Positions 1-34,770 of a DNA stretch of 64,000 bases are shown piece after piece; within the stretch, counting starts at the first letter, position 1; each line of letters opens with the position of its first letter. The notes beneath the pieces were generated by a model that was not told the DNA's origin, made no database searches, and worked only from the letters and a program-made list of their open reading frames with translations. The stretch comes from Rugalucina vietnamica. Its lineage: Eukaryota; Mollusca; Bivalvia; Lucinida; Lucinidae. The translations under genes were made by a program, and so were the position numbers. The DNA is taken from positions 35,046,139 to 35,110,138 of the forward strand of contig OZ024870.1 of the NCBI GenBank assembly GCA_964017185.1, read 5' to 3'.

Positions 1-156
1 CCCTTTTTCTGCCGACTCAATTTTTTTTTTTTTTTTTTTTGCTTTTCTGGAGTTTTTTTTTTTTTCTTCTTCTTTCTTCTGCTGGATTCAGTTCGGTAAT
101 GATTTTCGTCCATTGTGGTGTGGTTATAGACGATTCAGTTAGTAAAGTTTTTAGTC

Positions 157-652
157 ATGTCTTACAGGTGCTTTATTGTTGTTGTCTTTCCTATTAAGCT
201 TTCATTATGCAAGTGTCTAATTCGCGTGCGCAACTGTAGCAACAATATGGCCGACAAGTCAAGTCCGAGGGCGGAAAATGCCTTAGTTTTCTGTTGCAGC
301 GTCGTGTATAGCGACAATACTGGCTCTAACCTGGCAATTAAAAATGGGCTATACAGTTTTGAGCCAGACTACACGTGGAAAGATGTTTTGAAAGAATTGG
401 ATGAAAAACCAACATTACCATTTTGTAAAGCAGATACAGCAGACGTCGGGGTATCCTCCAAATTGAATGGCTCTAAAAAAATTTACCCAGACATGGATGA
501 GGCTATTGAGGTGGTGAAAAACTTCAACATAGATCTAAAATATGTCACATTTAAGATCTGTAAAGCTGTGGCAACTTTTGAACAGAAAACTAAAAGTTCA
601 GGCCCAACTGTGAATGCTTTCCAGAGATCATTTCAAACACAAACTCTTTTTG

Positions 653-697
<45 letters not shown>

Positions 698-699
698 AA
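157..699 (+). pseudogene. N-terminal exon of unknown gene, copy A, broken by poly-A expansion
   Basis: The open frame runs from ATG at 157. A second ATG at 247 (aacaatATGG) has better context and is the likelier start, giving MADKSSPRAEN at the N-terminus. The protein is mixed and hydrophilic with no domain I recognise. A run of 42 A (653-694) encodes polylysine and then runs into a stop. Copy B has 16 A at the same place and reads on through KDTESPRFTG to a possible donor (ACAG|GTATTT). The length difference (26) is not a multiple of three, so this copy is frameshifted unless the A count is a sequencing error. It may belong with the exons at 1787-4109. Confidence 0.5.
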
Positions 700-4109: not shown

Positions 4110-6091
4110 CCAGAGGACCAATGGTCCTGTAAACGCTCACCTGAGATCTGCAGCATATACCAATAAACATGTTTGAATATTATGGTATTTAATCCCAGTG
4201 CAGGGGCAGATGAAGCCCTTGGGCCATTTTCTTTTTCATAATAATCAATATTTTGTCCATTTGCCAATTTCCTGCTGGCTTTTTCCTTCAAATGACATTT
4301 TAACAGTTATTCCCATTCAAATGCATTGGCAACCCATGTTGACCTTGCCATAAACTGGGTCAAGGTCATCACAGGGTCATGATTTATATATACATTGTAG
4401 TACTTGAGCCATCGATGCTTCAAGCCAAGTTTCCTTGAAATCTGTCCACTGGTTCCGGAGAAGAAGATTTTTGAGAGATTTTTACCATATATGGGCCTGG
4501 CGGCCATCTTGGTCATGTGACCTGGATTATTTATATACACATTGATTACCCCATCCTTTTGATGCTTCACATAAAATTTGGCTTTGATTGGCCAAGTGGT
4601 TTCAGAGGAGCACATGTTTGAATATTATGGAGATATACAAGTATATTGCCCCGGGGTGGGGGCATATGAGCCCCTGTGGTCCATTTTTTGTCAGAATCAT
4701 TAATAGTCAGTCCTTTAGCCCATTTCCTGCAAGACTTTCACTTTAAATGACATTTTAAAAGTTTTCCCCATTCAAATGTATTGGTGACCTATGTTGACCT
4801 TGCCATAAAATAGGTCAAGGTCATCACAGGGTCATGATTTATATATACATTGTAGTGCTTTAGCCATCGATGTTTCATGCCAAGTTTCATTGAAATTGGT
4901 CCAACGGTTCCAGAGAAAAAGATTTTTGAAGGGTTTTTACCATATTTGGGCATGGCGGCCATCTTGGTCATGTGACCTGGATTATTTATATACACATTGG
5001 TTATCCCTTCCTATTGATGCATTACATAAAATTTGGCTTTGATTGGTCAAGTGGTTTCAGAGGAGCAGACGTTTGAATATAGTGAAGATATACATGTATA
5101 TTGCCCCGGGGTGGGGGCACATGAGCCCCTGGGGTCCATTTTTTTTTTCAGAATCATTAATATTCAGTCCTACTGCCCATTTCCTGCAAGACTTTCACTT
5201 TAAATGTCATTTTAAAAGTTTTCCCCATTCAAATGCATTGGCGACCTATGTTGACCTTGCCGTAAAATAGGTCAAGGTCATCACAGGGTCATGATTTATA
5301 TACACATTGTAGTGCTTTAGCCATCGATGCTTCATGCCAAGTTTCATTGAAATTGGTCCACCGGTTCCAGAGAAAAAGATTTTTGAAGGGTTTTTACCAT
5401 ATATGGGCATGGCGGCCATCTTGGTCATGTGACCTGGATTATTTATATACACATTGGTTATCCCTTCCTATTAATGCTTTACGTAAAATTTGGCTTTGAT
5501 TGGTCAAGCGGTTTCAGAGGAGAAGACATTTGAATATAGTGAAGATATACATGTATATTGCCCCGGGGTGGGGGCACATGAGCCCCTGGGGTCCATTTTT
5601 TTTCAGAATCATTAATATTCAGTCCTACTGCCCATTTCCTGCAAGACTTTCACTTTAAATGACATTTTAAAAGTTTTCCCCATTCAAATGCATTGGTGAG
5701 TTATGTTGACCTTGCTGTAAAATAGGTCAAGGTCATCACAGGGTCATAATTTATATACACATTGTAGTGCTTGAGCCATTGATGCTTCATGCCAAGTTTC
5801 GTTGAAATCGGTCCACTGGTTCGGGAGAAGAAGATTTTTGAAGGGTTTTTACCATATATGGGCATGGCGGCCATCTTGGTCATGTGACCTGGATTTCTTA
5901 TATACACATTGGTTCCCCCTTCCTATAGATGCTTCATATAAAATTTGGCTTTGATTGGCCAAGCGGTTTCAGAGGAGAAGATCTTTGAAATTGTGGACGG
6001 ACGACGGACGACGGACGGACGGACGCCGGATCATGGCCATCCTATAAGCTCACCTTGTGAGCCTAACGGCTCAGGTGAGCTAAAAAAAAAA
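4110..6091 (+). mobile_element. Complete family H element with about 455-bp tandem units
   Basis: It starts CCAGAGGACCAATGGTCC and ends in a hairpin (GCTCACCTTGTGAGCC taac GGCTCAGGTGAGC) followed by TAAAA. GCTCACCTGA near the start mirrors TCAGGTGAGC at the end. The interior is roughly four tandem units of about 455 bp with the core ATGACCCTGTGATGACCTTGAC (here split across strands), each giving spurious minus-strand frames. A GACGGACG microsatellite precedes the hairpin. Copy B gives the empty site (9 A at 43240-43248). Hairpin end, subterminal inverted repeat, tandem core and insertion in a T/A run resemble non-autonomous Helentron-like elements; that class is inference. Confidence 0.75.
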
Positions 6092-11593: not shown

Positions 11594-11821
11594 ATTTGTG
11601 CTTTCTGATTGTTTAAAATAATAGTGAATAACGACTGGTTTTATTTGCTGAAATGTTCCGTTTTCTCAAGGATTGTCCATCATGAAATATGTAGGTCGCG
11701 TATGTTTGATATTTTCTGGATAATGTATAAAAGAGATGTTTTGTTCCGATACATGTGATTCATGGCACCATTTTAACGTTTAAAGAGGCTGTTTGTATTT
11801 TGGTTTATGTTCTCGTTTCAG

Positions 11822-12511
11822 GACACGGTTCAAGAAGAACCTATGGCAAAGAAGCAGAAGTTGCCTACTGTACCGGATGATCCTAGTACACTAGAACAGA
11901 GGGTTCTGTCTCTTGAAAAGAAAACCGATGATGCTATAAGCAGACTCAAAGACCAGGTGAGGTCGTTGTGCCTCCAACATGATCCGAGTGAAGCATTGAT
12001 CTTGTTGACTCTCGATGAACTGGCTCGAGTCTCTAAGCGACAAGGCCATGCTGATTGGGAAATACATGACGAATTAGCCAGGCACGCAAAAATCCAACAA
12101 GGGCAGTTGGACCTGGCGCATTTTTGTCTGATGGCACTTAGTGGTCAAGCTGGTGACATCATCACTAAAGCGCTGTCAAAATGCAAGAAGCAAAAAAAGG
12201 CGGAAGCGAAGGCTAAAAATCCAATGACAGAAACTGAGACAAGGGCCACAATGTCACCTCTAACAAATCTGTACCCTCCGTTACCCGCCACTGGCTACCA
12301 ATACCCTAGCCCTTTTCCTACGACCTCATTTGGGTTTCAATATCCTGGTCAATATGCAGGTATGCCGATGTATCCGATGCCTCGTCCGTATTCTATGGGC
12401 AAGGGGGCAGTTGGAAGGCAGTGGAGGGCTAAGGGACCGTGTCATTTTTGCGACTCTACTGACCATCTAGTTAAAGATTGCCAGAAAATGAAACTTGCGA
12501 AACATAAATAA
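11822..12511 (+). CDS. Gag-like ORF1, exon 2 with CCHC zinc knuckle
   Basis: The exon begins DTVQEEPMAKKQK in the phase left by exon 1. It contains a short predicted coiled coil (LEQRVLSLEKKTDDAISRLK), a helical region, a K-rich stretch, a Pro/Tyr/Met-rich linker, and near the C-terminus CHFCDSTDHLVKDC, which fits the CX2CX4HX4C nucleic-acid-binding knuckle of gag proteins. The stop is at 12509. The open frame extends a few codons upstream, but the acceptor at 11821 makes 11822 the likely exon start. The role would be packaging the element RNA in the cytoplasm. It remains fully open, so gag was intact recently. Confidence 0.65.
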   Translation, partial: DTVQEEPMAKKQKLPTVPDDPSTLEQRVLSLEKKTDDAISRLKDQVRSLCLQHDPSEALILLTLDELARVSKRQGHADWEIHDELARHAKIQQGQLDLAHFCLMALSGQAGDIITKALSKCKKQKKAEAKAKNPMTETETRATMSPLTNLYPPLPATGYQYPSPFPTTSFGFQYPGQYAGMPMYPMPRPYSMGKGAVGRQWRAKGPCHFCDSTDHLVKDCQKMKLAKHK

Positions 12512-12721
12512 ACTTTTAGATTTTACGTATTACGCTGCTTTGCTTTTGGCTAGCTATCATGTATCATAATGGTTATTGTATGCGTAGGTCTATAGATGTA
12601 AAGTTTTTTTCTCCAATGTCTAGTCCAGGGACACAGATCCCTAGTGGGTCATCTTGATTCACGTGGGCTAGGTGTTGGGGATGTGTCCTTTTCTGAATTT
12701 TGCTGTTTTACCTTTTGGTAG

Positions 12722-13384
12722 GAGTGTAAACAACCTGCAGTTAAGACATCGCCAGGCTGTGATTTCATTCAGATTCCCGACTGGGAAAAGGCAATTGATT
12801 TTCAACCAGTGGACAGACAGATATCTAAGGAAGAGTGGGTTACTTTAGAAAAGGGCAGTCCCCAACTCCTTGCCCACCACGCATGCGCGGAAGATGTTCT
12901 ACGTGGCGACAATAGTTATAACATAAATAAGCTTCCCCTCAGAGACCCTGACAATTTTGTTTCTGGTGGTTTACATCATCAGGTTGCTGAATGGAGGAAA
13001 ATACTGTCTTCAGGCGTACAAGATAAAGAGATTCTGACATATATAGAAAATGGAGTTGATGTTAAATCTTTTTTCAAGCATTTTAAAGGCAATTTCAGAG
13101 GTAGGTCATATGATTCAGATGTGCCTCCGAGACAGTATTTTCCGAATTCTGGCAGTTGTAAAGCGTTTACTTCCTTTATTGTTACAGAATTATTGGATAG
13201 AATAAGAAATGGTTCTATTCGGGTCTGGGGTAAAGTTGGAGAATGTGACATGCCGAAAGTAATTATGCCTTTGACAGTTGAACCTAGTAAGCCTCGTTTA
13301 TGCCATGATGATCGATATCTGAATTTATGGACAAAAGATGTCCCTTTTAAACTGGAAACTTTGAAGGATGCTGATTTTAATTTT
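12722..13384 (+). pseudogene. Ngaro/DIRS-type reverse transcriptase, N-terminal part only
   Basis: After an acceptor-like tttaccttttggTAG the frame runs ECKQPAVKTSPGCDFIQIPD and on to VEPSKPRLCHDDRYLNLWTK. The PSKPRLCHDDRYLN segment is the finger region of this RT group. The palm with its catalytic aspartates, RNase H and tyrosine recombinase should follow. Instead, after about TLKDAD at 13370, homology changes to a different RT. The frame continues without meaning to 13501. The closest family call is from memory of similar invertebrate proteins. Confidence 0.55.
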
Positions 13385-14754
13385 AGGAAGACAAACTTCC
13401 TACGATGTATTGGTTACCTAAGCTTCACAAAAGACCATACAAAGCTAGATTTATTGCAAATTCTAGCTCTTGTACTACCACTGAACTTTCTAAATTATTA
13501 ACTTCCTGTCTTACTGCTATCAAATCGCATGTTATAAGATACTGTGAGACAGTGTATGAAACTTCAAATAAAAATTGGTTTTGGTCAATTAAAAATTCTG
13601 GTGAGGTGCTTAGTAAATTGAAGTGTAGAGGGTTCCGTGCGACAAGCTTGTCCACATATGATTTTTCTACTCTGTATACAACATTACCACATAATCTAAT
13701 AAAAGAAAAACTTCTGGATTTGATTGAGTGGACCTTCAAAAGGGCATTAAAAAACTATGGTTCACTTTATTTGGCATGTAATGACAGAAAGGCTTTTTTC
13801 ACTTCCTCTGACCAAAGTCGGTATACACTTTGGTCATGTCAGAATGTATGCGACTCCTTATCCTATCTCCTTGATAATATTTATATTAGATTTGGGACCA
13901 AGTTATACAGACAAATTGTTGGAATTCCGATGGGTACAAATTGCGCACCTCTAGTAGCTGATTTATTTTTATACTGCTACGAAAGAGATTTCATGGATTC
14001 TCTTAACCATGATAATCAAGCTGATGTTATCGAGGCTTTTAATTCCACATCTAGGTACCTCGATGACCTTTTGAACATTGACAACCCTTATTTTGAAGGT
14101 ATGGTCAATCAAATTTATCCACCTGAACTTCAGTTGAACAAAGCCAATATCTCAGATACTGAAGCCCCCTTTTTAGATCTACATCTTTCTGTTGCAAATG
14201 GATTTGTTTCTTCTAAAATTTATGATAAGCGCGATGACTTTGATTTTGATATAGTAAATTTTCCTTTTTTGGATGGTGACGTTCCTCGTCGTGCTTCTTA
14301 TGGTGTATACATTTCGCAACTTATTAGGTTTGCTAGAGTCTGCAATCATGTTACAGACTTCAACGCTCGAAATAAATGTTTAACGGCAAAACTTCTCCTA
14401 CAGGGCTATCGGTATCATAAACTTCGAAAAACATTTTCTAAATTTTATCGTAGACACTATGAATTGATTTCCAAATATAATGTTGGGTTAAAGACGCTTT
14501 TAAGTGAGGGCCTTTCGGAACCTGAATTTTATGGTGACTTGGTTTACAAATTTAAGAAACTTAAAGGAATTAATGATTTTTCTTTTCAGTTCAGAAAAAT
14601 CATAACACGTTACACACGTATAGGTTATAACTTGAATGTTATGCGACAGTCTGCATGCTTAGTTTTTAACCCAATCATGGTTGATAACTATGCTGCCTTC
14701 TTTAATTGCACGCCGGTGGGTCGGGCGTCAGACTCTATGATGGCCCCGACATAA
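13385..14754 (+). pseudogene. Penelope-like reverse transcriptase, 5'-truncated
   Basis: The reading frame is EDKLPTMYWLPKLHKRPYKA onward; counting from the methionine at 13405 there are 449 codons. LPKLHK (residues 4-9) is typical of Penelope-like RTs. STYDFSTLY carries the first catalytic Asp (86), GIPMGTNCAP is at 173-182, and YLDD at 218-221 is the second catalytic motif. The palm, thumb and C-terminal regions look intact and there is no internal stop. The fingers' first part and any N-terminal domain are missing. No GIY-YIG endonuclease follows the end (VGRASDSMMAPT). It is joined to the upstream RT in another frame at about 13370-13386, so it arrived by insertion or recombination. Confidence 0.65.
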
Positions 14755-16003: not shown

Positions 16004-16560
16004 CGAGCGAGTTGAGCAGAAACAAGACCAAGGCCTAAGATAACAAGAAAAGCTATAACATGTAGCCACATGTAATAATTGGGCGGTGTGATAAAAGAGG
16101 TAGAAATACTAAAAAGAAATATGGATTGATTTGCTAAGGTTTTATTATGGAAACGGCTACGTGTTAAAATTCCTTCATTCACTGGCTCCGTGTTAAAATT
16201 CCTTCATTCACCGGACTGCTTTCCACTGATTCGGGCGTTTTGGTCAATTACCAAATAAACAGACATTAATGATCCGGTTCCGACTATGACTACACACTCA
16301 GTTTAGGCAAATAAAATGTATAATCGGTATACTAACTCGAGCGATGTAGTCACAATAAAAACAAATTTAAAAAATTCAAACGAGCAGTCATCCTTTAATT
16401 TAATAATTAATGCAGTATTTCTGAACAAGATCATGATTGAAGAATAAGACTGAATGCAAAACTTAAGAATGGTTAAGAAATATGGGAGGGTCGGGTGATG
16501 AACCCTTCCCCTCTTGATTTCTTTTGGTGGTGAGCAAAAAAGAGTTAAGAACCTACGAAA
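16004..16560. other. Non-coding stretch with a short tandem duplication
   Basis: No gene seen. A 28-bp unit (GTGTTAAAATTCCTTCATTC core) occurs twice in tandem at about 16152-16207. Confidence 0.6.
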
Positions 16561-16574
16561 TGTCAATTCAATCT

Positions 16575-17124
16575 GGACATGATGTTTGAATATTATAGTC
16601 ATATACATGTATATAGCCCCGGTGCAGGGGCAGATAACCCCCTGGGGCCAAAATGTTTTTGTAAACATAAATAGTCCATCCATTTGCCCATGTCCTGCAA
16701 GTTTTGCCCTTCAAATCACATTTTAACAATTTTCCCCATTCAAATGCATGAGCGACCTATGTTGACCTTGCAGTTAATTAGGTCAAGGTCATCAGAGGGC
16801 CATGGATTGATTTATACAAACTTTGTAGAGCTCCATTGCCTGATGCTTCATGCCAAGTTTCAAAATCATAGGCCTTATGGTTCTGGAAAAGAAGATTTTT
16901 AAAGTTTTTGCTACTTATAGCCATGGCCTGGCGGAAATAACTTTTGTTCCCCCTTCCTGAGGATGCTCCATATAAAGTTTGGCTTTGATTGGCCCAGTGG
17001 TGTTAGAGGAGATGTTTCACTGAACATTGTGGACAACAATGACTACAACGACGACGGTCGATGGAGCATGGGTATACTATAAGCTCACCTTGTGAACATA
17101 ACGGCTCAGGTGAGCTAAAAATGG
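16575..17124 (+). mobile_element. Family H element, 5'-truncated, one unit
   Basis: It holds one unit of the family H core (TTGACCTTGCAGTTAATTAG, GGTCAAGGTCATC), a short GACGACGG tract and the terminal hairpin CTCACCTTGTGAAC ... GGCTCAGGTGAGCTAAAA. The CCAGAGGACC start is missing. Confidence 0.8.
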
Positions 17125-17164
17125 GACCTGGCGCGTATACTAGCATACAAATATGCATTCAAAG

Positions 17165-17390
17165 GAGCATGTTGGCCTGGTGGTTAGTGCATCAGACTCT
17201 GGTTAGGGAGGTAGGGAGTGGATCCCCACTGGTGGCTGGCTTATATCACTGCACGATGAGCAAGGGACATTGACTCTGGAAAGTACTTATTAATACACAC
17301 AAACGAGTGTCCCAAGCTGGGGACATGACAGAACTATTGTTGACTGGGACGTCACATCCATACCTAAATCAAACCAAAAGGTTGCACAGC
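17165..17390 (+). repeat. SINE-like repeat with degenerate tRNA-like head
   Basis: GGCCTGGTGGTTAGTGCATC resembles a tRNA A-box region but no good B box follows. The tail (GACTGGGACGTCACATCC) resembles tails of the SINE-1 family in this window. Weakly supported. Confidence 0.4.
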
Positions 17391-17524
17391 TCAAATGTGG
17401 GTTGTACATTTTGTAAAGTGTTGTTTCTTAGTCTTTCTTAAAAATCTGACAGCTGCTGACTACGCCATTTTAGCTCTAAAAATTCTGGTGTTTGATTTAA
17501 GGTCTAACATTCTTTCTTGGTCAT

Positions 17525-17765
17525 CAATTTTTCAGTTATGTCCGGATGGTGCGACGGTTTTCTGGGTATCAACCAGGGTGAAAATCATGAGAGCCATGGA
17601 CTAATTTCCCTCCTGGCGCACCCCCGGTGAAGTATTGTCAATTTGGCGTGTCACCAGTAAACCATTCAGATTCAGATGTGTCTTGCTCAAGGACGCAACC
17701 AAGTCCCAGTGGGGTTTGAACCCAGAACTTTGTGATTCAACACTACGCCACTGCCCTCACTAAGT
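17525..17765 (-). repeat. SINE-1 (tRNA-headed), diverged copy
   Basis: On the minus strand a tRNA-like head (GGCAGTGGCGTAGTG, B box GGGTTCAAACCCC) is followed by the shared core GTCCTTGAGCAAGACACA. The 3' part is rearranged compared with 32415-32620. Confidence 0.7.
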
Positions 17766-17769
17766 ACAT

Positions 17770-18223
17770 GACTGTAATGTGCTAAACCTCGGCTGCAGCA
17801 ATCATGCTTGATAGCTCAATTTCAGGAACATACTCTGAATCCCTGGCGACAGGTTTTCTTGCACCCCGACTCACCTACTGATCTCGAAATTTTAAAACCA
17901 GCAAAATTTATAAGTCATGAAATTTCATGTATTTATTTCTGTTTATGCACACTATGAAAGAACATAAATGCACTATTTACATATATAATACATGTACATG
18001 TTTGTACAAAACACATGCAATGTGTTTTTTTGTTTTTCGAATTTAAGCATGAAAACTCCATGTGACCTGCATTGTCATGTTTGTCCATTAATGGGTCATG
18101 AAAGAAAGTCAACCTTGATAAACATATCCATATTGCAAGTATTATAATCTATATCACACTGGTTTATATTCAGAGAGAATTGTGAATGAAAACAAACAAT
18201 GTCGATGCCATGATAAATACCTG
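17770..18223. other. Non-coding, AT-rich
   Basis: I see no gene, repeat family or strong structure here. Confidence 0.5.
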
Positions 18224-18425
18224 TGTGGAGTATGGCAAGCCGTTTTACTATTTATTATGCTTATTAGATATCTTGAATAGTAAATAAGATATCTTAATTA
18301 GGATATAAGATATCTTATTTAGCAATAAAGATATCTTTTTTATCAAAAAAGATATCTTATATCCTAAATTAGATATCTTATATAGTAAAGAAGATACCTA
18401 ATATGCTAAATAAGATATCTTATTT

Positions 18426-18937
18426 GATCCCACAATTAAGATATCCTATATAGCATATAAGATATCTTATTTGATAATTTAGATATCTAATATACTAAAT
18501 AAGATATCTACTATACCTAAAAAAGATATCTTCTTTACAAGATTTATTAAGATATCTACTTTCATAAATAAGATATATATCTTCATTGCTAAACTAGATA
18601 TCTTATATAGCAAATAAGATATCTAAAGTGGTAAATAAGATATCTTATTTAGGTATAATAGATATCTTATTTAATTTATTTGATCCCACAATTAAGATAT
18701 CCTATATAGCATATAAGATATCTTATTTGATAATTTAGATATCTAATATACTAAATAAGATATCTACTATACCTAAAAAAGATATCTTCTTTACAAGATT
18801 TATTAAGATATCTACTTTCATAAATAAGATATATATCTTCATTGCTAAACTAGATATCTTATATAGCAAATAAGATATCTAAAGTGGTAAATAAGATATC
18901 TTATTTAGGTATAATAGATATCTTATTTAATATATAT
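18426..18937 (+). repeat. 256-bp internal tandem duplication within the GATATC array
   Basis: Both copies start GATCCCACAATTAAGATATC and are nearly identical, including the rare GATATATATC variant. They show that the array grows by unequal exchange or replication slippage of blocks, not only single units. Confidence 0.9.
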
Positions 18938-18987
18938 GATATCTTATTTAGTATATTAGATATCTAAATTATCAAATAAGATATCTT
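18938..18987. repeat. 50-bp inverted copy of 18459-18508 / 18715-18764
   Basis: Exact reverse complement of the run TTAGATATCTAATATACT with its neighbours, so the array contains long hairpins beyond the single 10-bp palindromes. Confidence 0.85.
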
Positions 18988-19787
18988 GATTAAGGCTATA
19001 AATAAGATATCTGTATTGGTATAGTAGATATCTTATATAAGTATCAGAAACCAATTGTGATTGGGTAAAACAAATAAGATATCTTATGTACTAAATAAGA
19101 TATCTGATTTGTTAAACCTAAATAAGATATCTAATATAGGATATAAGATATCTATTTTTGTGTATACATAAGATATCTTATTTGTCAAATAAGATATCTA
19201 CTTTAGCATAGTAGATATCTTATTTGTGAATGCAATTAAGATATCTTATATGTTGAAGAAGATATCTTATTTGACAAATAAGATATCTTATATGATAAAA
19301 TAGATATCTAATATACTTTTTTAGATATCTTATATATTAATTAAGATATCTTATTTAGAAAAAACATTATTGATATCTAATTTATCATATTAGATATCTA
19401 ATTTGTTAAACAAGATATCTTAATTAACAAATTAAATGCTATATCAGATATCTATATTAATTAAGATATCTTATATATTTTTACAAATAAGATATCTAAT
19501 ATATCAATCAAGATATCTTATTTGTTAATTTAGATATCTACATTAACAAATAAGATATCTTGTTTAGTTAAAAAGATATCTTATATACTATATAAGATAT
19601 CTTAAATGACAATTTAGATATCTAATATAACAAAACAGATATCTTATTTGCTATATAAGATATCTTCTTTATAATAGATATCTAATAAAATAAAGTAGAT
19701 ATCTTATTTATTAAAGAAGATATCTTATATACAATATAAGATATCTGTTTGTTTGAATAAATAGTAAAACGGCTTGCCATTGTGGAG

Positions 19788-20426
19788 ACAACTTTCCACA
19801 AATCACAATTTTTTTTTGTAAAGTTGTTCTAAGGCACGTAATTGCATACTATAGTCTTTGAGTCTTTTACTGATTTTATCCGCGTTGGCTGTTCTCAGTT
19901 CTGGATAATCGGTTTGGTATTGTTACTATATATCACTGAAACATGTTTCGTGCACATGCACATCTTTGTTAACAGCTTCTCACCATGGTCTTATGTCACA
20001 GACAGCAAGATCCTTCATGCAGAAGAAACATACATACACACGAGTATTTAACAACAATTGTCAGAGAATCAGACTAAATCCTCGCTTCAATAAAACGCCT
20101 ATGGGAAAGAACACAGGATGCTAAAAAATGATGCACAGTTCAAACCCAAGAATAGATCTTGTCAATGGCACTGTCACACTGAATCCAGTATAGCCCAGCC
20201 TTTTTATAGCAGGGCTTTAAAACTAAACTTTAATGATTTTTGCTTTGTAATATCAACTATATCTTGATTTCTTCACAGTATTACTATAACTCATGTCCAC
20301 TTCAAAACACAGATTGTATTAAAGTCCATTATTTATCATTTAAGTTAGGGTGAACAGTTTATTGTACATGCAGTCATCCACTCTAATTGACTTAAAATAT
20401 AAGTTTTCTGTTGTGGTTCACTACCT
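19788..20426. other. Non-coding stretch
   Basis: No gene or repeat recognised; short frames only. Confidence 0.5.
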
Positions 20427-22961: not shown

Positions 22962-25123
22962 CCAGAGGACCATTGGTCCTGAGAACGCTCACCTGAAGCC
23001 TGATCCTGGAGTATTAAGTCATCATGAAATGACCTTGACCTTGAATACTCACACACCTTTATTGAATTCATAAGTTGTCTGCATCTGCAAAGTTTCAGGT
23101 CTCAGGCTACAATAGTTTCAAAACCCAGTGATTTATGAGAAAACCATAATTTTAATTTTGATATTTAAATGACTTTGGGTCAAGGTCAAGAAATGACCTT
23201 GGCCTTCATTAATTACTTACCTCAATTGACTCCATTGGTTGTCTGCATCTAGCAACTTCCAGGTCTCAGACTGCAACAGTTTCCAAAATATCCATTGTTT
23301 TCGCCTTTTCCCGTGTAAAAGCCTATGTTTCCAAAATTGACCTTGCCGTAAAATAGGTCAAGGTCATCCTATGGTCATCATTTGATCAAACTATGATGGG
23401 CTGTAGTCCCAAATGCTACATACCAAGTTTCGCGAAAATTGGCCTGCCGGTTCTGGAGAAGAAAATTTTTGAGTGGTTTTTACCATATATGGGCGTGGCG
23501 GCCATCTTGGTATCGTGACTTGGATTTCGCGATCAAACTTTCGTCTCCCCTACCCATGGATGCTCCACATAAAATTTCACTTTGATTGGCCCAGCAGTTT
23601 CAGAGAAGAAGATCTTTGAACAGTGTGTATGGACGACAAACTGGCCAAGGTCAAGAGATGACCTTGACCTAAATTAATCACATACCTTCATCTACTCCAT
23701 TAGTTGTTTGCATCTACCACTTTTCAAGCATCAGGCTGCAATAGTTTTCAAAAAATCCATAGTTTTCACTTTTTCCCATGTAAAAGCCTATGTTCCCAAA
23801 ATTGACATTGCCGTAAAATATGTCAAGGTCATCCTAGGGTCATCATTTTATCAAACTATGATTGGCTGGAGTCCCAGATGCTACATACTAAGTTTCATGA
23901 AAATCGGCCTGCCGGTTCTGGAGAAGAAGATTTTTGAGTGGTTTTTACCATATATGGGCGTGGCAGCCATCTTGGTCATGTGACCTGGATTTTGCGATCA
24001 AACTTTCGTCTCCCCTACCCATGGATGCTCCACATAAAATTTCACTTTGATTGGCCCAGCAGTTTCAGAGAAGAAGACCTTTGAAAAGTGTGTATGGACG
24101 ACAGACTGGCCAAGGTCAAGAGATGACCTTGACCTACATTAATCACATACCTTCATCTACTCCGTTAGTTGTTTGCATCTACCACTTTTCAGGCATCAGG
24201 CTGCAATAGTTTTCAAAAAATCCATAGTTCTCACTTTTTCCCATGTAAAAGCCTATGTTTCCGAAATTGACATTGCCGTAAATTAGGTCAAGGTCATCCT
24301 AGGGTCATCATTTTATCAAACTATGATGGGCTAAAGCCCCAAATGCTACATACCAAGTTTCATGAAAATCGGCCTGCCGGTTCTGGAGAAGAAGATTTTT
24401 GAGTGGTTTTTACCATATATGGGCGTGGCAGCCATCTTGGTCATGTGACCTGGATTTCGCGATCAAACTTGCATCTCCTCTACCCATGGATGCTCCACAT
24501 AAAATTTCACTTTGATTGGCCCAGCAGTTTCAGAGAAGAAGATCTTTGAAAAGTGTGAATGGACGACAGACTGGCCAAGGTCAAGAGATGACCTTGACCT
24601 AAATTAATCACATACCTTCATCTACTCCATTAGTTGTTTGCATCTACCACTTTTCAGGCCTCAGGCTGCAATAGTTTTCAAAAAATCCATAGTTTTCACT
24701 TTTTACCATGTAAAAGCCTATGTTTCCAAATTTGACCTTGCCGTAAAATAGGTCAAGGTCATCCAAGGGTCATCATTTTATCAAACTATGATGGGCTGAA
24801 GTCCCCGATGCTACATACCAAGTTTCGTGGAAATCAGCCCACCGGTTCTGAAGAAGATTTTTGAAGGGTTTTTACCATATGTGGGCGTGGCGGCCATCTT
24901 GGTCATGTGACCTGGATTTCGCGATCAAACTTGAAATGCCACTACCCAAGGAGGCTCCACATAAAATTTCAACTAGATTGGCCAAGCGGTTTCAGAGAAG
25001 AAGATCTTTGAAATTGTGGACGACGACGACGACGACGGACGGACGACGGACGACGGACGGACGCCGGATCATGGCCATCCTATAAGCTCACCTTGTGAGC
25101 CTTCGGCTCAGGTGAGCTAAAAA
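22962..25123 (+). mobile_element. Complete family H element, second subfamily
   Basis: It starts CCAGAGGACCATTGGTCC, ends in CTCACCTTGTGAGCC ttc GGCTCAGGTGAGCTAAAAA, and has four tandem units of about 465 bp. Each unit contains GACCTTGACC, TGGTCATGTGACC-type and CAGAGAAGAAGATCTTTGAA blocks. A GACGACGACGG microsatellite precedes the hairpin. The ends match the element at 4110-6091, but the unit sequence is diverged, so this is a separate subfamily. Confidence 0.8.
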
Positions 25124-34046: not shown

Positions 34047-34206
34047 ACCCTTTTTCTGCCGACTCAAATTTTTTTTTTTTTTTTTTTTGCTTTTCTGGAG
34101 TTTTTTTTTTTTTTTTTCTTTCTTTCTTCTGCTGGATTCAGTTCGGTAATGATTTTCGTCCATTGTGGTGCGGTTATAGACGATTCAGTAAGTAAAGTTT
34201 TTAGTC

Positions 34207-34770
34207 ATGTCTTACAGGTGCTTTATTGTTGTTGTCTTTCCTATTAAGCTTTCATTATGCAAGTGTCTAATTCGCGTGCGCAACTGTAGCAACAATATGG
34301 TGGACAAGACAAGTCCGAGGGCGGAAAATGCCGTAGTTTTCTGTTGCAGTGTCGTGTATAGTGACAATACTGGCTCTAACCTGGCAATTAAAAATGGGCT
34401 ATACAGTTTTGAGCCAGACTACACGTGGAAAGATGTTTTGAAAGAATTGGATGAAAAACCAACATTACCATTTTGTAAAGCAGATACAGCAGACGTCGGG
34501 GTATCGTCCAAATTGAATGGCTCTAAAAAAATTTACCCAGACATCGATGAGGCTATTGAGGTGGTGAAAAACTTCAACATAGATCTAAAATATGTCACAT
34601 TTAAGATCTGTAAGGCTGTGGCAACTTTTGAACAGAAAACTAAAAGTTCAGGCCCAACTGTGAATGCTTTCCAGAGATCATTTCAAACACAAACTCTTTT
34701 TGAAAAAAAAAAAAAAAAGTTAAAGGATACAGAGAGCCCCAGATTTACAGGTATTTGTCTGCAATGCTAA
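34207..34770 (+). CDS. N-terminal exon of unknown gene, copy B (open)
   Basis: Same frame as 157-699 with a 16-base A run (34703-34718), so it reads through to KDTESPRFTGICLQC. A possible donor (TTACAG|GTATTT) lies at 34749. The likely start is the ATG at 34297 (MVDKTSPRAENAVV). Compared with copy A, about four residue changes and about four silent changes suggest weak or no protein constraint since duplication. Function unknown. Confidence 0.4.
   Translation: MSYRCFIVVVFPIKLSLCKCLIRVRNCSNNMVDKTSPRAENAVVFCCSVVYSDNTGSNLAIKNGLYSFEPDYTWKDVLKELDEKPTLPFCKADTADVGVSSKLNGSKKIYPDIDEAIEVVKNFNIDLKYVTFKICKAVATFEQKTKSSGPTVNAFQRSFQTQTLFEKKKKKLKDTESPRFTGICLQC

What the first reader, a model, noticed from the sequence alone, without database searches (positions are those of the whole stretch)
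18224..19787. A transposable element built from 66 palindromes phased at 21 bp
Between perfect 25-bp inverted ends and a 7-8 bp target duplication, the whole interior is AAGATATCTT-type palindromes. Measured centre-to-centre distances are exactly 21 bp for most neighbours (for example 18267, 18288, 18309, 18330, 18351, 18372, 18393, 18414), about two turns of B-DNA, so the palindromes face one side of the helix. Spacers are diverged while GATATC is kept in 63 of 66 units, which suggests selection on the motif or homogenisation. This could be a multi-site platform for a dimeric protein (transposase or host factor), or a hairpin-forming ssDNA. I know of no described element like it; that is a limit of memory, not a search.
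Basis: partly seen in the sequence, partly recalled or inferred. Interest (0 to 1): 0.92.

Follow-up and report, generated by a model that had tools for sequence, protein, structure and literature searches.

The report
Jumping gene with selected palindrome arrays
A non-coding jumping gene carries almost sixty evenly spaced copies of one eight-letter palindrome that have stayed unchanged while the DNA between them drifted, which suggests that a paired protein must coat the element for it to move.

Summary
The window holds a 1.55-kb transposon with perfect 25-bp inverted ends, 63 exact GATATC and 41 of 62 gaps of exactly 21 bp. In its 1.09-Gb genome the end 21-mer (up to 3 mismatches) occurs 869+867 times, control 6+8. 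Termini TA..TA and 6-bp target duplications are those of IS3EU/GingerRoot transposons. Ten of the 63 sites are a private duplication; two lineages carry 58-59 sites in two half-arrays around a core. Of 30 copies sampled, 20 ride inside a larger repeat.

Decisive test: between two lineages GATATC changed at 0 of 353 sites, its A/T flanks at 1 of 117, spacers at 229 of 801; mutations private to single copies hit the core at two thirds of the spacer rate (54/3801 v 192/8776; p=3e-17). Spacing is kept in 53 of 56 gaps, with 26-bp steps at mirrored places. This is selection on a phased array, not homogenisation or hairpins. Most likely a dimeric, probably element-encoded protein coats both arms and pairs the ends (inferred). 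An integrase domain lies downstream of one array-bearing end; that copy's right end was not seen.

The parts
18225..18230 (.). left target-site duplication GTGGAG
   Evidence: 6-bp rule from insertions outside the carrier
18231..18256 (+). left terminal inverted repeat, 26 bp (TATGGCAAGCCG..); the inner 25 bp match the right end perfectly
18266..19033 (.). left half-array of AGATATCT units (includes the private 256-bp duplication)
18420..18940 (.). 256-bp tandem duplication, two copies, 99% matches, private to this copy
19033..19077 (.). 45-bp central spacer: inferred to be a shrunken remnant of the non-array core found in other lineages (899 bp between palindromes in L028, 131-bp core in L004)
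19077..19746 (.). right half-array of AGATATCT units, ending with the 18-bp step and three 21-bp steps
19756..19781 (-). right terminal inverted repeat; terminal base 19781 is T where copies outside the carrier have A
19782..19787 (.). right target-site duplication GTGGAG
16042..20426 (+). carrier repeat that contains the element (matched in all 10 loci fetched with wide flanks, which were chosen because they share the near flank; matching pieces 86-99.7% identical); the window copy is cut at 20426 where other copies continue

Best explanation
A non-autonomous terminal-inverted-repeat DNA transposon of the IS3EU/GingerRoot type by its ends, whose interior is a pair of subterminal arrays (about 27 + 32 sites) of the palindrome AGATATCT. 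SHOWN (computed): the sites and their 21/26/18-bp spacing were kept while two lineages diverged by 29% in spacers, and single copies lose sites at two thirds of, or (in carrier-borne copies) nearly, the spacer rate. INFERRED: each site binds a dimer; dimers two helical turns apart bind cooperatively as a nucleoprotein filament on each arm; because the two arms carry the same block layout counted from the core, the filaments pair the two ends for excision and insertion. The binding protein is most likely the transposase or a partner protein of a gene-bearing relative with the same arrays.
For: Majority sequences of 7 and 4 independent insertions carry 58 and 59 intact GATATC; fixed differences core 0/353, A/T flank 1/117, spacer 229/801; private differences core 54/3801, flank 9/1268, spacer 192/8776; core against spacer p=3e-17. 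Of the 21 possible 8-bp phases of the unit, A-GATATC-T has 1 fixed and 54 private changes; the others have 10-135 fixed and 48-94 private. In 43 carrier-borne copies core 88/13495 and spacer 257/34708 differ from their consensus. Spacing is kept in 53 of 56 gaps; 3 length changes beside 230 fixed substitutions against 52 indels beside 255 private ones, p=8e-11, a rough test because ends of partial fetches count as indels. At spacer positions that are all A/T in a third lineage, fixed changes are A<>T swaps in 56 of 69, private ones in 33 of 61, p=0.001. In the first two lineages the four longer steps counted from the core are intervals 2, 7, 13, 19 in both halves. One array-bearing left end at C11:43361.2 kb (L099) is followed on the same strand by an rva_4 integrase domain at C11:43365.0-43366.5 kb. 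Precedent: IS607 transposase dimers bind helically phased subterminal motifs as a filament that captures the second end (PMC6188088, passages including part of the abstract).
Against: No binding protein is shown. The right end of the gene-bearing copy was not seen: about 1 kb after the gene's stop holds one GATATC and no array; the integrase domain has one in-frame stop; the right-end pattern (46 matches, all listed, up to 1 mismatch) has none there, and one search has none there at 0-1 mismatches (its list of 2-3 mismatches is cut off before C11). The private core rate is somewhat below the spacer rate (1.4% v 2.2%), so slower mutation may explain a small part. About 59 nearly redundant sites are hard to keep by selection unless binding is all-or-none. 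In the third lineage one left-half block has 3 or 4 units depending on the copy, so exact mirroring is firm only in two lineages, and the mirroring was noticed after the fact. Host-factor binding would give the same pattern.
Confidence: 0.55

Rival explanations
1. The array is bound by a host dimeric DNA-binding protein and selected because copies that recruit it are better expressed, less silenced or better placed; it has no role in end pairing.
Against: The array spans almost the whole element from 36 bp inside each terminus, keeps the same layout in both arms, and is present at the gene-bearing left end.
Confidence: 0.25
2. Concerted evolution: unequal exchange or gene conversion keeps spreading GATATC units.
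For: The window copy has a fresh 256-bp internal duplication; locus L013 has three forward ends at 1065-bp intervals.
Against: Units of diverged lineages are orthologous and in register (0.743 against 0.55-0.61 shifted); neighbouring spacers are hardly more alike than distant ones in the same array; conversion would homogenise spacers too.
Confidence: 0.05
3. Hairpin or cruciform DNA (or structured RNA) is the selected feature.
For: A single strand folds far better than shuffles, z -12.45.
Against: Expected of any palindrome array. Arms beyond AGATATCT do not covary; between lineages 113 one-sided changes make or break an arm pair against 10 two-sided changes that keep one; GATATC itself shows no compensatory change.
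Confidence: 0.04
4. Low mutability or ascertainment: GATATC simply mutates little, or only young intact copies were sampled.
For: The copies fetched first have perfect end 21-mers; private core changes are at 1.4% against 2.2% in spacers.
Against: In the same copies private mutations strike G and C of GATATC at 16/510 and 12/510, the first equal to the fastest spacer position, yet none is fixed.
Confidence: 0.02

Closest known systems
IS3EU / GingerRoot DNA transposons
   Same: TA..TA termini and 6-bp target duplications (described in PMC10045372, passages read); an integrase domain near one array-bearing end.
   Different: No palindrome array is mentioned in the passages read; the transposase of this family was not placed in a tree.
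Foldback elements Tetris and Galileo (Drosophila)
   Same: Tandem repeats inside the arms; Tetris is non-autonomous; the Tetris paper says that Galileo's repeats carry extra transposase-binding sites (PMC4079207, passages; PMC4168063, passages).
   Different: Their repeats are about 140-220 bp in long terminal inverted repeats; here the unit is 21 bp and the arms share only layout, not spacer sequence.
IS607-family ends (IS1535)
   Same: Transposase dimers on helically phased subterminal motifs form a filament that captures the second end (PMC6188088, passages including part of the abstract).
   Different: Bacterial serine transposase, four motifs, no terminal inverted repeats and no target duplication.
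hAT subterminal repeats (Hermes)
   Same: Short subterminal motifs, two of them quasi-palindromic and bound cooperatively, exact phasing called crucial (PMC10368747, passages including part of the abstract).
   Different: A handful of sites; BED domains bind one end only; hAT 8-bp target duplications (recalled).
Plasmid iterons and partition arrays (recalled, no call)
   Same: Repeats about two helical turns apart bound cooperatively.
   Different: Not transposons; bacterial replication or segregation proteins.

Membership tests
IS3EU/GingerRoot superfamily | termini TA..TA | tested here: met
   TATGGCAAG..CTTGCCATA in insertions outside the carrier; the window copy has a changed last base
IS3EU/GingerRoot superfamily | target duplication usually 6 bp | tested here: met
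   exact in 9 of 14 non-carrier insertions with both flanks in hand, one mismatch in 2 (L043, G02), unclear in 3 (L011, L019, L044)
IS3EU/GingerRoot superfamily | DDD/E transposase related to IS3/IS481 | tested here: inconclusive
   rva_4 integrase domain 3.0-4.6 kb downstream of an array-bearing left end; right end not seen, no phylogeny; the link of rva_4 to IS3EU is recalled
Miniature/non-autonomous TIR transposon | TIRs, target duplication, no coding capacity, many copies | tested here: met
   (no frame of 150 codons or more overlaps the element)
Foldback element | long near-identical inverted repeat arms | tested here: not met
   left half against reverse complement of right half no more alike than permuted spacers in three lineages; only the spacing layout is mirrored. 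One locus, L044, is itself an inverted duplication
Satellite DNA | homogenised tandem repeat without mobile ends | tested here: not met
   spacers not homogenised, TIRs and target duplications present

The most novel reading that the evidence does not exclude
The element is a nucleoprotein zipper: about 59 dimers load cooperatively on two arms whose blocks of sites, turned by half a helical turn at each 26-bp hinge, match each other from the core outwards, so that the arms pair site by site. Selection then watches every one of about 59 sites of a gene-less element because one missing site breaks the filament.
Probability: 0.3. Interest if true: 0.88.

Novelty: new variant of a known kind. Interest (0 to 1): 0.74.

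Why it matters
Non-autonomous transposons are usually thought to need little beyond their ends (general knowledge). Here selection can be read site by site over the whole interior, with a built-in control (private mutations of single and of passively carried copies). It gives an in-sequence assay of what a transposase or its partner may read: the motif, the helical phase, tolerance of A<>T swaps in spacers, and symmetry of two arms. It also points to a testable assembly with many more sites than the end complexes read about here (IS607, Hermes).

Tried and rejected
Viral contig scans for the end and for three phased palindromes: no hit. Pfam on seven frames of the window: none at E<=0.001 (three) or 0.01 (four). 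Papers: searches listed no title that names such an element; I read passages of five papers only, so this does not show that none is in print. Looking for a gene-bearing copy through the 131-bp core of the third lineage: 23 core hits, of which the surroundings of 5 were read (L004, L088, L089, L091, L092); none held a gene, and the other 18 were not read; comparing the two lists by eye, none of the 23 lies within 10 kb of an rva_4 hit. L092 proved a copy with most of the array missing. The middle of L028 has no stop-free run much above 100 codons. A first right-half alignment was wrong through a trimming error in my script and was redone. The A<>T test with positions picked from the same data (p=2e-7) is circular; I use the one with positions taken from the third lineage; over all spacer positions p is 0.012. 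Exact mirroring in the third lineage ({2,7,12,18} in both halves by consensus) is not used as firm evidence because single copies disagree. Rows dropped before counts: one search left out 5 of 48 carrier copies (1200 bp or shorter) and, of the 10 others, L011 and L044; searches used 7 of the 10 non-carrier copies (L011 and L044 dropped, L028 placed in the second lineage); one search left L010 out of the right halves. The third-lineage consensus rests on 5 copies plus 5 partial right ends.

Full report
What is there. The window copy spans 18231-19781 between two GTGGAG duplications. It holds 63 exact GATATC; 41 of 62 gaps are 21 bp, the rest mainly 26, 22, 27 and 18. The first palindrome lies at the same distance from either end. 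The unit is A-GATATC-T plus a 15-base spacer, T-W-A-W-W-T-R-N-Y-A-W-W-W-W-A in outline, with a free centre.

The family. I fetched 30 loci, picked from the first 100 places listed, where two perfect ends lie near each other: 20 share the window's flank on at least one side and 10 do not. The shared flanks belong to a larger repeat, window 16042-20426, which continues beyond 20426 in other copies; so much of the copy number is passive carriage. The 10 others plus 4 of a further lineage show 6-bp target duplications next to TA..TA ends: exact in 9 of 14, one mismatch in 2, unclear in 3. TA..TA with usually 6 bp is the description of IS3EU, and mostly of GingerRoot, in PMC10045372 (passages read).

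Three lineages. The first (window type) and the second (L028 and three relatives at C4, C7 and C11, found through the L028 middle) have orthologous arrays. The third (L004 and copies whose one end reads GGGG or similar after the TIR) has an array whose spacers are barely or not recognisably like the others (permutations reaching the observed score: 5 to 147 of 300), around a 131-bp core with 23 matches in the genome. In each lineage a non-array core separates two half-arrays; in the window type it has shrunk to a 45-bp spacer.

The selection test. Majority sequences of 7 independent insertions (lineage 1) and 4 (lineage 2) were compared. They hold 58 and 59 intact GATATC. Fixed differences: core 0 of 353, flanking A/T 1 of 117, spacer 229 of 801. 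Differences private to single copies, which should mostly be later decay: core 54 of 3801, flank 9 of 1268, spacer 192 of 8776. Fisher p is 3e-17 for core against spacer. Moving an 8-bp frame through all 21 phases, A-GATATC-T has 1 fixed and 54 private changes, while every other frame has 10-135 fixed. In 43 carrier-borne copies core and spacer differ from their consensus at 0.65% and 0.74%. L028 alone against the carrier consensus gives core 0 of 312 and spacer 232 of 798. The alignment is unlikely to be to blame: 53 of 56 gaps have the same length in both lineages, so nearly all units are compared without gaps, and they are in register, 0.743 identity against 0.55-0.61 one to four units off. 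Against the reading: the private core rate is about two thirds of the spacer rate, so slightly lower mutability or some selection on recent branches is possible; it cannot give 0 of 353.

Spacing and spacers. Three length changes stand beside 230 fixed substitutions, but 52 indels beside 255 private substitutions, p=8e-11 (with counts; the indel counts come from alignment gaps over whole halves and include ends of partial fetches, so this is a rough test). Fixed spacer changes at positions that are all A or T in the third lineage are mostly A<>T swaps (56 of 69 against 33 of 61 private, p=0.001), as expected if A/T content or minor-groove shape is read there; over all spacer positions the excess is weaker (p=0.012). 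Counted outward from the core, the longer steps are intervals 2, 7, 13 and 19 in the left and in the right half of lineages 1 and 2 (lineage 1 has 27 and 28 bp for two of them on the right); four positions agreeing among 25 by chance is about 8e-5, but the pattern was noticed first and tested afterwards. The halves have no detectable spacer similarity. The third lineage has a like layout, with smaller and less certain blocks.

Mechanism. A palindromic motif whose letters do not change, not even symmetrically, at fixed helical distance, with A/T-rich spacers, is best read as sites for a dimer bound side by side. Mirrored layout in both arms and presence at the end of a gene-bearing copy favour a role in end pairing. 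At C11 an array-bearing left end with two mismatches (L099) is followed on the same strand by an rva_4 integrase domain with one stop; the 260 bp at the gene's 3' end match nowhere else in the genome in a DNA search. With five loci holding this core and 134 rva_4 pieces at fewer places, such a neighbourhood by chance is of order 0.001-0.002 (my estimate, not a tool result). IS607 and Hermes show that transposases can use phased subterminal sites; Galileo repeats are said to carry extra transposase sites. Not shown: the binding protein, cooperativity, and the right end of the gene-bearing copy.

Novelty. By its ends it looks like a relative of a known superfamily; an element with such an array and such site-by-site conservation did not appear in the listings of my paper searches. 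I call it a new variant of a known kind.

Noticed in passing
L013 (G000:C1:20736400-20740400): Three forward ends at 1065-bp intervals and one reverse end; 163 bp of carrier flank recur at two of them: a local tandem array of part of the element with carrier flank.
   Followed up: no
L044 (G000:C3:21682700-21684600): A copy with the same subterminal sequence at both ends and flanks that are reverse complements of each other; the locus is 77% self-complementary over 1.9 kb, an inverted duplication (or an assembly fault).
   Followed up: partly
window 130-699 and 34192-34770: Two very similar reading frames (189 and 192 codons open stop to stop), no Pfam match; the first runs into a 42-base A tract (653-694), the second has a shorter run of lysine codons there: perhaps retrocopies of one gene.
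   Followed up: partly
window 4203-5989 and 23181-25013: Two tandem arrays of long units (455 and 465 bp, about 3.9 copies each).
   Followed up: no
window 11777-14754: Reading frames that look like a retroelement (reverse-transcriptase-like GIPMGTNCAPLVADLFL stretch, likeness recalled), no Pfam match at E<=0.001.
   Followed up: no
window 16042-20426; L029-L038: The carrier repeat has a shared left end AACAAGAAAAGC, spans at least 5.6 kb including the element in the copies measured, has no stop-free run over 114 codons in the copy checked (L036), and its class is unknown.
   Followed up: partly
L004:2048-2178: The 131-bp core of the third lineage contains AAAATGGCTGAT and TCTGATTGG, which also occur near the two edges of the L028 middle: perhaps the start and end of the lost gene.
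   Followed up: partly
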